Assembly: GCA_020073645.1 (NCBI GenBank) | Contig: JAIQET010000011.1 | Span: 1 to 64,000 of the forward strand | Direction: 5' to 3' | DNA: 64,000 nucleotides | From: Terriglobia bacterium | GTDB taxonomy: Bacteria > Acidobacteriota > Terriglobia > Terriglobales > Acidobacteriaceae | In this document: positions 54,968-58,424 of the stretch, piece after piece | Layout: each line of letters starts with the position of its first letter | Position numbering within the stretch: position 1 is the first letter of the stretch | Program-made: the position numbers and the translations under genes | Notes under the pieces: model-generated | What the model was told of the DNA's origin: nothing | What the model saw: the letters and a program-made list of their open reading frames with translations, nothing else | Database searches by the model: none

Positions 54968-56638
54968 ATGCGCCGCGTCTTGTTTGTTTTTCTCCTGTTG
55001 TCTTCTCTGGCATTTGCCCAAGCCCGCGGGAGCAGTGCATCGCAAGAGAAAGCGCCGCCCCCGGCGGAGCCAGAAGCTACCCCCCGTGTCCTGCCGGGCG
55101 ACTGGGAATTGAAGCCTCTCGTTCGTATCGGCGACCCCGCGCCTGAAACCGGCGGCCGCTTCCAAGAATTCAGCGATATTGCCTGGATCGACTACGGGGA
55201 CGCCACGCCCGACATGGGGCGCCGCTTGCAAGAGTTTAGCGAAGTCTTTTGGCTGGATCCCGGTGTGCTCGTGTTCTGGGGCCGCTTCGGGCCCAAGCAG
55301 TGGGGCCTGTACTCGTGGAAAGACGGCCAACTAACCCTGGTGGTGCCCGAGGGGAACAAGGTGCAAGCTCCGCACGCCGAAGGCGTCACGGAAAAGCTGG
55401 ACGTACACCGCAGGTGGGGCTGGGGGTTTCGAACCATTGTGCAGGCCGGAAAATCTGTTGTGTACATCACTCCTACGTTCGGGTCGTTCCGGCCGACTGC
55501 CAGCGTTTACAGCTGGGACGGGCAGTACTTGCGAAAGGCCCTGGCTCGCGGAGACACCATCTCGCTCGGTGGGATTGCCCACACACTGCGTTCCGTCTGG
55601 ATCATGAATGTAGGCTCCGACGGCGCCCTCCTGGTCCTTTATGAAACGGAGAAGCCACGCAAGACCTTCGGACTTGCTCTATTTGACGGCATCACGCTAA
55701 CCTCCGTGCTCGCTTACGGTGACGACCTGCCAGGAATGCGCGGTGTGAAGCCTTTCGGCGGGATCTGGTTCACGGGTCTGCATCTTCCTGCGATGATGGG
55801 TATGTCGCCGATCAGCGTACCGGGCGCGATGATTGCCGTTACGCGGCTTGCAGCACCCCCCTCCAGCGCGGTCTACCGACTGGCAGGGAACCGCTTCGAA
55901 AAACTTTTCGCCCCCGGCGACCCCCGTCCGATTGATCCGAAGCAGGAAATTCGGAATGTGTCCCTGTTCGGCGCATGGGACCCCGCTGAATTTCTCTTCT
56001 GTGTTAACGGAAGAGATGTGTTCTTGTACCGGAAGGGAGAGTCTAAGAAGATCTTTGATGATTCCTGGATGAGCAAGGTATTCAACGTGGACGCAAACGT
56101 GTGGTCCGTTAAACCGTTCGCCGAGATGAGCTTTGCGAAGTTGGGAGAATTGGATTACGTATTCCTGGTTACCATCTCGCGGCCGGCCACGGGGCGCGAG
56201 GGATCACCATTCTCCGATCGCTACCTGGAACTGGTGGAGATGATGCGGAGTGCTTTCCTGCGCTTCGATGGGCGCCAGGTCATCAATCTAACGCAGGCGA
56301 TCCCGCTAGGTCGCACCAGCGATTTGCACTGGATGGCCGGTGATTTCCCTGGGGTGTTGTTGCATGCAAAGCCGCCCGTGCAAGAGATAAGCAATCCTGA
56401 ATTCATCGAGCGCGTGCGGATACTGGAAGGTTGGCATCCGCGCGAGACCTGGTGGTTCCTGGATGCGAACGCGGCGGAAAAAGGGTTAGAACCGACGCCA
56501 GAGTTTCATACCACTGATGGGCGGCGTGTCCACCTCTGGCAAGTGCGGGCCTGGCGCAGGCCGGGAGAAGCGGTGGTGCAACTCGGAGACGGCTTCTACT
56601 TGTTGGCGAAGCGAAAAGAGGCTACCCCCGAACGCTAG
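54968..56638 (+). CDS. large exported protein of unknown function, with an internal tandem repeat
   Basis: A 556-residue protein with signal peptide (RRVLFVFLLLSSLAFAQ) and a strong AAGGAGG site. The mature part looks beta-rich, with recurring motifs of the type VxxxGDxxPG and LFDGITLTSVLAYGDD / LAGNRFEKLFAPGD that suggest a propeller- or kelch-like fold. Near residues 50-100 a 22-residue unit is duplicated in tandem: IGDPAPETGGRFQEFSDIAW, then GDATPDMGRRLQEFSEVFWLD. No enzyme motif seen and no family named. Confidence 0.7.
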   Translation: MRRVLFVFLLLSSLAFAQARGSSASQEKAPPPAEPEATPRVLPGDWELKPLVRIGDPAPETGGRFQEFSDIAWIDYGDATPDMGRRLQEFSEVFWLDPGVLVFWGRFGPKQWGLYSWKDGQLTLVVPEGNKVQAPHAEGVTEKLDVHRRWGWGFRTIVQAGKSVVYITPTFGSFRPTASVYSWDGQYLRKALARGDTISLGGIAHTLRSVWIMNVGSDGALLVLYETEKPRKTFGLALFDGITLTSVLAYGDDLPGMRGVKPFGGIWFTGLHLPAMMGMSPISVPGAMIAVTRLAAPPSSAVYRLAGNRFEKLFAPGDPRPIDPKQEIRNVSLFGAWDPAEFLFCVNGRDVFLYRKGESKKIFDDSWMSKVFNVDANVWSVKPFAEMSFAKLGELDYVFLVTISRPATGREGSPFSDRYLELVEMMRSAFLRFDGRQVINLTQAIPLGRTSDLHWMAGDFPGVLLHAKPPVQEISNPEFIERVRILEGWHPRETWWFLDANAAEKGLEPTPEFHTTDGRRVHLWQVRAWRRPGEAVVQLGDGFYLLAKRKEATPER

Positions 56639-56705
56639 TGCCAGAATCCAGAGGGCTGATTAGATAACCGTGTCGGCTCCTAAGCGGCCGAGTAGACTTG
56701 GTGCG

Positions 56706-56724
56706 CTCATGCAACCAAGGCTCG
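56706..56724. repeat. left subterminal inverted repeat of the IS element
   Basis: CTCATGCAACCAAGGCTCG. It matches the reverse complement of 57915-57933 at 16 of 19 positions; the three mismatches are consecutive, in the middle of the left half (GCA against TCG). Confidence 0.8.
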
Positions 56725-56743
56725 GAGGAAAGGAGCCGAGCAC

Positions 56744-57781
56744 ATGAAGATTGTAGGGTGTGATTTGCATACGCGCTACCAGCAGATTGCCCTGCTGGAC
56801 GCTGCGACCGGCGAACTGGAGGAGCGGCGTTTGGAGCATGAAAGCGGTGAGGCACAAGCTTTCTATGCCGCCTTGTCGAGTCCGGTTCGAGTGGGGATCG
56901 AGGCCACCGGGCACACGCGCTGGTTCGAGCGCCTGCTGGGGGAACTAGGGCACGAGCTATGGATCGGGGATGCGGCGCAGATCCGGGCAGCCATGGTGCG
57001 CAAGCAGAAGACGGACGCACGCGACGCCGCCCACTTGCTGGAGTTGCTGTTGAGCGGTCGTTTTCCGCGCATCTGGCGGCCCACGCTTGAGGAGCGCGAT
57101 CTGCGGCAGCTGGTATGGCATCGACAGAAGCTGGTGTGGATGCGGAATGCCATCGGAAACCAGTTGCACGCCCTGGCCATGGGCGAGGGCGTGTGCCGGA
57201 AGAAAAAGCTGTTCACGAAGAAGGGCCGGGTGGAGCTCGAAGGCCTGCAGTTGGGTCCGTGGGCCAGTCATCGCCGGCAGGAATTGCTGACCATGATGGA
57301 CCAACTGGATTCATCGATGAAAGAGCTGGACCAGGCCGTGGCCGAGCAAGCGGAACAGAACCAGGCGGCGGTGCTTTTGATGACGCATCCCGGAGTGGGG
57401 CCGGTGACTTCGCTGGCCTTCGTGCTCACGATTGGTCCGGTGGCACGTTTCGAGCGGAGCAAACAGGTGGTGAGTTACCTGGGACTAAATCCGCGCGAGC
57501 ATTCTTCGGGCGGACGGCAGCGATTGGGTGCGATCAGCAAGCAAGGCAACCCCATGATGCGTTCGCTGCTGGTCGAAGCCGGACACACGGCAGCGCGTCT
57601 GGATGCGGAACTACGGCAGGACTATCAGCGGCTGAAGATGCGCCGTGGGAGCGGAGTGGCGAAGGTCGCCATCGCCCGCAAGTTGGCGGTACGAATGTAC
57701 TGGATGCTGCGCAGCCCGGCCAGTTACGCGCAGCTGGTTCGCATGCAAGGCAGCCCGGGGGCCACCCTGGTGAAGCCGTAA
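56744..57781 (+). CDS. IS110/IS1111-family transposase (DEDD recombinase)
   Basis: A 345-residue transposase. The N-terminal RuvC-like DEDD domain shows Asp in IVGCDLH, Glu in VGIEATGHTRWFE, and the pair in KTDARDAAHLL. A coiled-coil region follows, then the C-terminal Tnp_20 domain with LMTHPGVGPVTSLAFVLTIG, YLGLNPREHSSGG and ISKQGNPMMRSLLVEAGH, which contains the conserved serine region. All motifs look intact, so the copy may be active. ATG with GGAGGAAAGGAG upstream. Confidence 0.95.
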   Translation: MKIVGCDLHTRYQQIALLDAATGELEERRLEHESGEAQAFYAALSSPVRVGIEATGHTRWFERLLGELGHELWIGDAAQIRAAMVRKQKTDARDAAHLLELLLSGRFPRIWRPTLEERDLRQLVWHRQKLVWMRNAIGNQLHALAMGEGVCRKKKLFTKKGRVELEGLQLGPWASHRRQELLTMMDQLDSSMKELDQAVAEQAEQNQAAVLLMTHPGVGPVTSLAFVLTIGPVARFERSKQVVSYLGLNPREHSSGGRQRLGAISKQGNPMMRSLLVEAGHTAARLDAELRQDYQRLKMRRGSGVAKVAIARKLAVRMYWMLRSPASYAQLVRMQGSPGATLVKP

Positions 57782-57784
57782 GTC

Positions 57785-57914
57785 ATCGTTGGGCTGATTG
57801 GGCGCCTTGCCTTCCCGAGAAGGTCGGGAAGTCCGAACAACGAATCATGGTCGGAACCAAAGTGACCGAATAGATGGTTGGTGGAACCAAGTTTCCACCG
57901 CGCGATTCTAAGAG
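57785..57914 (+). ncRNA. candidate guide (bridge/seek) RNA region of the IS element
   Basis: The non-coding end downstream of the transposase folds into at least two perfect hairpins. CTTCCCGA pairs with TCGGGAAG (57811-57831), and GGTGGAA pairs with TTCCACC (57880-57899). In IS110-family elements a structured RNA encoded in the non-coding end guides target and donor choice, and in the IS1111 subgroup it lies downstream of the transposase. The location and structure fit; the RNA itself is inferred. Confidence 0.5.
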
Positions 57915-57933
57915 CGAGCCTTGGTCGAATGAG
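57915..57933. repeat. right subterminal inverted repeat of the IS element
   Basis: CGAGCCTTGGTCGAATGAG, inverted partner of 56706-56724. Confidence 0.8.
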
Positions 57934-58086
57934 CAAAAAAACAGAAGCAACACCAAAACCCTCTACGAAGGGAAAGTCAAAACCTTCGACCGCTAGCAGT
58001 GTCTCTTGACAACGCCGACACGGTTATAGAGGGTGGCACAGTCATTCGCGCTCTTTGCGATGAGTGGGGTTACGATGCTGTCTGAC

Positions 58087-58129
58087 GGGTGGCCCTTGAC
58101 AGAGCCTTCGCTCTTATCGAGGGCCACCC
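58087..58129. repeat. inverted repeat GGGTGGCCCT / AGGGCCACCC
   Basis: Two ten-base perfectly complementary arms 23 bases apart, in the non-coding stretch right of the IS element. The arms resemble the GGGTGGGCCACCC motif next to 53897 and another near 58172-58180 (TGGGCCACCC), so it belongs to a dispersed family. Confidence 0.6.
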
Positions 58130-58187
58130 CTGGTGGTTGAAGGATATGCTTTTCAAAACCGGGAATGAGGCTGGGCCACCCGCCCCC

Positions 58188-58322
58188 CAGTACCAACACA
58201 TCGTCTCCCGCTGGATGATGCCGTTGCAGTTTGGGGAGCTGGTGTTCATGTTCTGGCTTCTGATCATGGGCGCAAAGCCAAAGCCATTGGCGGGTGCAGC
58301 CTCCACGGTGGCGGCTGGTTAG
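58188..58322 (+). pseudogene. possible C-terminal remnant of a small membrane protein
   Basis: Forty-four codons end in a stop and read QYQHIVSRWMMPLQFGELVFMFWLLIMGAKPKPL, a hydrophobic segment with the look of the last helix of DUF4386-type membrane proteins. Upstream in the same frame is repeat sequence, with no start codon of its own and no other helices. It may be what remains of a gene disrupted by the repeats. The evidence is composition only. Confidence 0.25.
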
Positions 58323-58354
58323 GCGCACTCCGCGAAGGGTTGGGGCATCCGGCC

Positions 58355-58424
58355 CTTAGTTAAGGAAACGTCCCGTCTGTCCCCGGGTTCCTGTCTGTCC
58401 CCGGGTTCCTGTCCCCGGGTTCCC
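58355..58424 (+). repeat. dispersed repeat R40, copy A, with three tandem CTGTCCCCGGGTTCC units
   Basis: A unit close to CTTAGTTAAGGAAACGTCCC followed by GTCTGTCCCCGGGTTCC. The second half is repeated about three times in tandem up to 58424. Further copies on the other strand lie at 59523-59561 and 60529-60560, plus a partial plus-strand copy at about 59574-59595. Confidence 0.8.

What the first reader, a model, noticed from the sequence alone, without database searches (positions are those of the whole stretch)
56700..57940. Apparently intact IS1111-like element with a structured 3' non-coding end
The transposase has all DEDD and serine-domain motifs, subterminal inverted repeats are clear, and the 130 bases behind the gene fold into two perfect hairpins. 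By analogy with the RNA-guided mechanism of IS110-family elements this end probably encodes the guide RNA. The loops would carry the target- and donor-recognition sequences.
Basis: partly seen in the sequence, partly recalled or inferred. Interest (0 to 1): 0.55.

Follow-up and report, generated by a model that had tools for sequence, protein, structure and literature searches.

The report
RNA-guided jumping gene, IS1111 type
This is an apparently intact bacterial insertion sequence of a known kind that is thought to use a small RNA to choose where it lands; here the guide stretches of that RNA can be read from sequence comparison, and one lies inside the last codons of the transposase gene.

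Summary
The anatomy given was wrong. The RNA (57741-57906) starts inside the transposase gene and straddles its stop codon.

86 distinct elements (the window's and relatives, nearly all Acidobacteriota where named) were compared. Paired structure is strongly supported (325 compensatory cells; 112.6 in shuffles; 61 sequences). In 80 elements the right-target guide pairs with the right flank in 7.8 of 10 bases (4.1 for swapped partners), the left guide matches the left flank in 3.9 of 5 (1.6); 0 of 20,000 permutations reached either. Donor guides match the element's own ends (77 of 80 on the right). A same-genus genome lacks the element at this site.

The mechanism was published in 2024. New here: the right-target guide lies inside the transposase reading frame in 76 of 86 (not in the control IS5075), and a conserved internal complementarity of unknown role. 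No expression or transposition evidence.

The parts
56657..58030 (+). whole IS1111-type element, 1374 bp
   Evidence: 14-bp perfect sTIR, 7/3-bp end rule consistent with five copies L052-L056, left junction against same-genus genome
56657..56663 (+). left-end extension TGATTAG; right half of the donor junction
   Evidence: its 5th base covaries with a donor guide
56664..56677 (+). left subterminal inverted repeat ATAACCGTGTCGGC
   Evidence: I3
58014..58027 (+). right subterminal inverted repeat GCCGACACGGTTAT
   Evidence: I3
58028..58030 (+). right-end extension AGA; left half of the donor junction
56670..56743 (+). leader that folds into a strong hairpin containing a Shine-Dalgarno-like GGAG in front of the transposase gene
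   Evidence: fold of 56657-56746: -40.4 kcal/mol, z -4.75; regulatory role is inference
56744..57781 (+). transposase (recombinase) gene, 345 aa, open, DEDD_Tnp_IS110 + Transposase_20
   Evidence: I1; conserved complementarity
57915..57934 (+). internal inverted repeat, right arm, 6 bases behind the aligned RNA
   Evidence: I1
57741..57906 (+). seekRNA/bridge RNA (covariance-model match, 142.7 bits; the window is one of the model's training sequences); overlaps the last 41 bases of the transposase gene
57745..57756 (+). 5' arm of the stem closing the target-binding loop, inside the transposase ORF
   Evidence: helix 1: 11 of 11 pairs with two-sided changes
57758..57767 (+). right-target guide (T guide) GGGGCCACCC, inside the transposase ORF; 8 of 10 pairs with right flank 58031-58040
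57769..57787 (+). hairpin between the two target guides, contains the TAA stop codon 57779-57781
   Evidence: helix 2
57788..57799 (+). left-target guide (B guide) GTTGGGC followed by TGATT; matches left flank/left end GGGC|TGATT (56653-56661)
57800..57810 (+). 3' arm of the stem closing the target-binding loop
   Evidence: helix 1
57812..57830 (+). hairpin TTCCCGA/TCGGGAA between the two loops
   Evidence: helix 3
57843..57847 (+). donor guide AATCA, complementary to left end TGATT
57870..57874 (+). donor guide ATAGA, same sequence as right end ATAGA 58026-58030
   Evidence: identical in 77 of 80 elements
57880..57899 (+). terminal hairpin GGTGGAA/TTCCACC
   Evidence: helix 6 (not predicted by RNAalifold; present in the single-sequence fold)
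58006..58011 (+). -35 box TTGACA in the right end; joining of the ends would put GATGAT 17 bp behind it
   Evidence: TTGACA in 76 of 86, GATGAT across the joint in 73 of 86
58031..58067 (+). right flank: foot of a REP-like palindrome GGGTGGC...TCATTCGC...GCGATGA

Best explanation
An apparently intact IS1111-group insertion sequence of a bacterium whose nearest named relatives of this gene are Acidobacteriota (Terriglobia), moving by RNA-guided recombination. Inferred sequence of events: the element excises as a circle; joining of its ends builds a promoter (TTGACA in the right end, GATGAT across the joint) that transcribes leader, transposase and guide RNA as one unit; the transposase binds the processed RNA. 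[quoted passage not shown] A second loop carries two donor guides that read the element's own right end (ATAGA) and left end (TGATT). The transposase then joins donor circle and target at one site and in one orientation, here the foot of a REP-like palindrome, 18 bp behind the stop codon of an ORF. Shown by sequence comparison: ends, structure, the four guide-DNA correspondences, the target, and the site without the element in a relative. Inferred from the published IS1111/IS110 work: transcription, processing, protein binding, recombination. Departure from the published layout: the right-target guide and one arm of the closing stem are also the last codons of the transposase gene, so a change of target rewrites the protein's C-terminal tail.
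For: Family: PF01548 and PF02371, NCBIfam NF033542 'IS110 family RNA-guided transposase'. Ends: 14-bp sTIR with 7/3 extensions. Structure on 61 sequences: 87.4% of cells paired, 325 cells changed on both sides against 112.6 +- 8.5 in shuffles (0 of 500), slid controls at most 92. RNAalifold, not given a structure, found the closing stem, the inter-guide hairpin, helix 3 and three of four pairs of helix 5. Target guides, 80 elements: T 7.81 of 10 against 4.11 for swapped pairs; B 3.92 of 5 against 1.56; 0 of 20,000 permutations each; with 23 mutually dissimilar T guides 7.30 against 3.69, 0 of 20,000. Donor guides: right end identical in 77 of 80, over five variants; fifth base of left end complementary in 72 of 80, over three pair types. 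A model built on 61 of these elements found one RNA in the window's genome and RNAs in 53 of 200 genomes of the class, own genome and some training genomes included. Same-genus genome G001 has the site without the element behind the related gene.
Against: No RNA, protein-RNA or transposition data; none can be had here. The window copy is not the best match of its kind (T 8 of 10, B 4 of 7). Of 51 distinct T guides 9 pair in 6 or fewer of 10 even with the better of two registers; L037 pairs in 3. The places of the guides were first seen by eye in 29 loci that largely belong to the test set. RNAalifold did not predict helices 4 and 6, and helix 4 shows no two-sided change. A DNA search of the window's genome finds no second complete copy, only short pieces. 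The site in G001 is not identical to the flanks: AGAGGG stands on both sides of the element and once in G001, so a short duplication cannot be excluded from this locus alone.
Confidence: 0.93

Rival explanations
1. The 3' structure is a regulatory or stability element of the transposase mRNA, not a guide; agreement with the flanks is chance or common descent.
For: Structure alone does not prove guiding. Related elements share guides and flanks, so the 80 rows are not independent.
Against: Matches persist among 23 guides that differ from each other in more than 3 of 10 places, own target jointly best for 18 of 23, 0 of 20,000 permutations; the donor guides follow changes in the elements' own ends.
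Confidence: 0.04
2. One reading: the internal repeat 56705-56724/57915-57934 is the terminal repeat and the outer parts are flanking DNA.
For: That repeat is long (18 of 20) and its complementarity is conserved in relatives.
Against: The outer repeat and the TGAT in front of it recur in 86 elements in different surroundings (six registers were set by this TGAT); flanks of the five copies L052-L056 begin to differ at the 8th base outside the outer repeat on the left and the 4th on the right; homology to the site without the element stops at 56656.
Confidence: 0.01
3. The element works as described, but the internal repeat is a DNA binding site of the transposase or of a host protein near both ends and has nothing to do with RNA. 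(This concerns only the internal repeat and does not compete with the main explanation.)
For: Its core (ACCAAGGCTCG-like) is conserved in sequence in many relatives; mismatches show no excess of G-U (27) over A-C/C-A (23).
Against: It lies at unlike distances from the two ends, in a leader that folds strongly, and close behind the donor loop, which would also suit an RNA duplex.
Confidence: 0.5

Closest known systems
seekRNA of IS1111-type elements ISEc11, ISPa11, ISKpn4 (Siddiquee et al. 2024, PMC11187229; parts 1-5 of 9 of the text read, and search passages; figures not seen)
   Same: sTIR with 7/3 extensions; guide RNA at the 3' side of tnp; top-strand guide 5' of bottom-strand guide; junction promoter; targets include REP elements (ISPa11).
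   Different: There the RNA is described as determined by the non-coding region behind tnp; here its 5' arm and first guide are inside the ORF. Guides for the element's own ends, not described in the parts read, are read here from covariation.
bridge RNA of IS110/IS1111 elements (Durrant et al. 2024, PMC11208160; section 12 and search passages read; figures not seen)
   Same: Two loops, each with a left and a right guide, for target and donor; predicted within the RE of IS1111 elements (a bridge RNA in 93.0% of them); [quoted passage not shown]
   Different: IS621 carries the RNA in front of the gene and has the left guide first; here it is behind the gene with the right guide first. Overlap with the CDS is not stated in the passages read, though the flanks used in their search for IS621 relatives included 50 bp of CDS.
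IS5075 (plasmid record NZ_CP056739.1, L181, used as control)
   Same: 12-bp sTIR, right-end extension AGA, T guide with 9 contiguous matches to the right flank.
   Different: Its T guide lies about 94-105 nt behind the stop codon; its transposase is 28% identical over 82% of the length; no internal left-end/NCR complementarity above shuffles (26 of 200 as high).

Membership tests
IS1111 group (IS110 family) | DEDD (PF01548) plus Transposase_20 (PF02371) transposase with SG motif, about 330-350 aa | tested here: met
   345 aa; that the invariant residues are the catalytic ones is recalled
IS1111 group (IS110 family) | subterminal inverted repeats, usually 11-13 bp, with 7 bp outside on the left and 3 on the right | tested here: met
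   14 bp, 7/3
IS1111 group (IS110 family) | long non-coding region behind tnp that specifies the guide RNA | tested here: met
   but the RNA begins inside tnp
IS1111 group (IS110 family) | guide complementary to the target top strand lies 5' of the bottom-strand guide | tested here: met
IS1111 group (IS110 family) | no target duplication | tested here: inconclusive
   the G001 site differs in sequence and AGAGGG occurs on both sides of the element
IS1111 group (IS110 family) | circular intermediate with promoter at the joint | not testable with these tools
   promoter parts present: TTGACA in 76 of 86, GATGAT across the joint in 73 of 86
bispecific bridge RNA | two loops with left/right guides for target and for donor | tested here: met
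   by comparison only
bispecific bridge RNA | RNA bound by the recombinase, programmable recombination | not testable with these tools
   no experiment

The most novel reading that the evidence does not exclude
In this clade the guide RNA is welded to the transposase gene and its leader. The right-target guide is coding sequence, and a third, conserved pairing joins the tnp leader (which hides the ribosome site in a hairpin) to the stretch close behind the guide RNA. That duplex would set the 3' end of the guide RNA (for example by RNase III) and switch translation, coupling transposase synthesis to guide maturation.
Probability: 0.15. Interest if true: 0.7.

Novelty: new variant of a known kind. 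Interest (0 to 1): 0.42.

Why it matters
RNA-guided recombinases that insert DNA at a chosen site are sought as editing tools. This clade supplies dozens of naturally retargeted IS1111 elements whose guides and targets can be read side by side. It also warns that a guide search limited to the non-coding region would miss the right-target guide here, and that retargeting such an element also alters the transposase's tail.

Tried and rejected
Rfam search of 56400-58400 found nothing at E 1 or better. Folding the region from behind the gene to the right end gave no signal (z -0.69), because the RNA starts further upstream. The target motif GGGTGGCCCANNC is not enriched in the window's genome (7 places against 6 for the reversed control), and a longer pattern of the palindrome gave 9 places with up to 3 mismatches against 6, so I do not call the target an abundant REP family in this genome. 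The overlap of guide and gene is no sign of selection for an open frame: no stop between stem start and guide end in 77 of 86 in the real frame, against 81 and 73 in the other two. G-U against A-C mismatches in the internal repeat (27 against 23, alignments with score 10 or more) gave no support for pairing as RNA. A crude test of the lower leader stem (exact complement of one 6-mer before the ATG: 24 of 86) was too rigid to decide anything. Of four control elements from plasmids, IS5075 (L181) gave its T guide, Aminobacter (L184) only its B guide, IS5708 (L182) neither, and Rhizobium (L183) no clear sTIR.

Rows dropped and choices made: 126 loci passed the search for sTIR plus TTGAC box, 86 were distinct with 20 bp of flank; the 86 include the window and five copies of one element (L052-L056). 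Six registers were corrected to the TGAT start; at least one (L024) remains off. 6 of 86 with short flanks were left out of the guide test (80 used). 16 near-identical RNAs, then 9 of the remaining 70 (long insertions, one truncated), were left out of alignment A2 (61 used). T guides were scored in register 0 or -1, the better taken, for own and swapped partners alike; the shift was allowed after seeing that a subgroup was off by one. The guide positions were first found by eye in 29 loci that largely belong to the tested set.

Full report
What is there. The transposase ORF 56744-57781 (345 aa) matches DEDD_Tnp_IS110 and Transposase_20 and NCBIfam NF033542, 'IS110 family RNA-guided transposase', at 231.8 bits against a cut-off of 140. 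In the window's protein aligned with 12 relatives (51-90% identical) E53, D91, S254 and S255 are invariant and D7 and D94 at least 90% conserved. That these are the catalytic DEDD and serine residues is recalled knowledge of the family. A DNA search of the window's genome found no other complete copy; the best other matches are a 97% piece of the left end (C91, 198 bp, breaking off inside tnp) and an 81% left-end piece of 83 bp (C119). The protein search counted two further matches in that genome, which the listing did not show.

Ends. The finding's 'subterminal repeats' are the internal pair 56705-56724/57915-57934. Outside it lies a perfect 14-bp pair at 56664-56677/58014-58027. With the published IS1111 rule of 7 bp left and 3 bp right (PMC11187229) the element is 56657-58030. 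The rule agrees with five insertions of one relative in one genome (L052-L056): left flanks begin to differ at the eighth base outside the repeat, right flanks at the fourth, where one of the five differs. In a genome of the same genus (G001) the gene upstream of the element has a 92% identical relative; the DNA behind it runs in parallel with the window up to base 56656 and then continues with a palindrome related to the window's right flank (27 of 33 from 58028 on). So the left end is fixed to the base, the right end to within 3 bp at this locus.

Relatives. Those titles are nearly all of Acidobacteriota; one is Planctomycetota and one just 'bacterium'. 126 loci had both a sTIR and a TTGAC box in the right end; 86 were distinct, the window included.

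Structure. On an alignment of 61 of the 86 (A2, sequence-only MAFFT) a structure of six helices was counted: 87.4% of cells paired (75.0 shuffled), 32 of 40 pairs with a change on both sides, 325 such cells (112.6 +- 8.5 shuffled, 0 of 500), covariation 0.401 against at most 0.143 for slid versions. The structure was drawn from the window's row and the relatives, which favours it over slid versions, and the shuffles do not keep relatedness. RNAalifold on its own gave 22 pairs, 21 with two-sided changes: the closing stem, the inter-guide hairpin, the third helix and three pairs of helix 5; it did not give helices 4 and 6. The window's RNA alone folds into the closing stem, the inter-guide hairpin, helix 3 and helix 6, but not helices 4 and 5. 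Helix 4, which would mask one donor guide, shows no two-sided change and is weakly supported. A model built from A2 finds one RNA in the window's genome at E 1 or better, 57741-57906, 142.7 bits, and matches in 53 of 200 genomes of the class at E 1e-4; own genome and some training genomes are among them.

Guides. The 10 bases before the inter-guide hairpin (57758-57767) were compared with the right flank, and the 5 bases before TGATT in the B guide with the left flank, in the 80 elements with long enough flanks. T: mean 7.81 of 10, off-diagonal 4.11. B: 3.92 of 5, off-diagonal 1.56. No permutation of 20,000 reached either. Unique T guides only (51): 7.59 against 3.89; unique B guides (55): 3.85 against 1.45; 23 T guides differing by more than 3 bases: 7.30 against 3.69, own target jointly best for 18 of 23. 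Failures: 9 of 51 unique T guides score 6 or less; L037 scores 3 of 10 and one of the five copies of the multi-copy element (L054) 6 of 10 in register 0. Donor: the five bases ending the right end equal the five-base guide in 77 of 80 (ATAGA 25, ATCGA 23, AGAGA 19, ATACA 8, ATTGA 2); the three misses are one G/A change, one C/T change and one element with misread register (L024). The fifth base of the left end is complementary to its guide base in 72 of 80 (T-A 57, G-C 14, C-G 1), not in 8. For the window: T 8 of 10, B GGGC followed by TGATT, donor guides AATCA and ATAGA both exact.

Overlap with the gene. In 76 of 86 the T guide lies wholly inside the tnp reading frame, in 6 the stop codon is inside the guide, in 4 it comes before. 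In IS5075, fetched as a control, the T guide is about 94-105 nt behind the stop; in an Aminobacter element the T guide was not clear but the B guide is about 127 nt behind the stop (about 7 nt in the window); a third control (IS5708) could not be resolved and a fourth (Rhizobium) showed no clear sTIR. The overlap thus sets this clade apart from the one control with a readable T guide, and the second points the same way; how other IS1111 members stand was not surveyed. It is not evidence that the tail is selected as protein. In the passages I read of the two founding papers the overlap is not described (searches; passages). Most subscription papers and bioRxiv preprints are not in the library, and figures were not seen.

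Promoter. TTGACA stands in the right end in 76 of 86; joining the ends would put the -10 box 17 bp (73) or 18 bp (13) behind it, GATGAT in 73 and CATGAT in 10 of 86, in line with the junction promoters published for other members.

Internal repeat. The left-end leader and the stretch behind the donor loop are complementary in the 70 elements tested taken together: local score 12.6 on average, 8.3 with swapped partners (0 of 5000 permutations), 6.9 with shuffled partners; own partner at least as good as every swap in 18 of 70 and above the 95th percentile of swaps in 37 of 70. The left arm mostly ends 14-25 bases before ATG; the right arm mostly starts 2-20 bases behind the aligned RNA. A few elements (for example L024, L147, L050) score no better than the shuffled mean. 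G-U (27) does not exceed A-C (23) among mismatches, so pairing as RNA is not favoured over a DNA site; IS5075 shows nothing above shuffles. Function open.

Verdict. The mechanism is known; the element is a new member with a variant layout. Steps shown by comparison: ends, structure, guides, site. Steps inferred: transcription, processing, binding, recombination.

Noticed in passing
window 58087-58129: A solo right end like that of another IS1111 subgroup (TTGACAGAGCCTTCGCTCTTATCGA, compare L012 and L014) between GGGTGGCCC and GGGCCACCC, about 65 bp behind the element: probably a remnant of a second element that used the same kind of target.
   Followed up: partly
L003 1480-1583 (genome contig C119): A stretch of about 104 bp that looks like a left end of this element family closed on itself (starts GGCTGATTAGAT, ends ATCTAGTCAGGCC), possibly a small non-autonomous relative.
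   Followed up: no
L054 200-760, minus strand: The right end of this copy is joined, at its exact end, to the interior of a second copy in direct orientation, starting just behind that copy's right-target guide; two guide-RNA matches lie in tandem.
   Followed up: partly
genome G207, contig C1: Thirteen guide-RNA matches in one single-contig genome of the family: a burst of one element, good material for a target logo.
   Followed up: partly
subgroup with right end ...AGAGA (e.g. L023, L028, L060): The target guide is off by one base relative to the flank compared with L022 and L064, as if the crossover base can fall on either side.
   Followed up: no
window 56670-56743: The leader of the transposase gene folds strongly (z -4.75) with the likely ribosome-binding site inside the stem, suggesting low translation by default.
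   Followed up: partly
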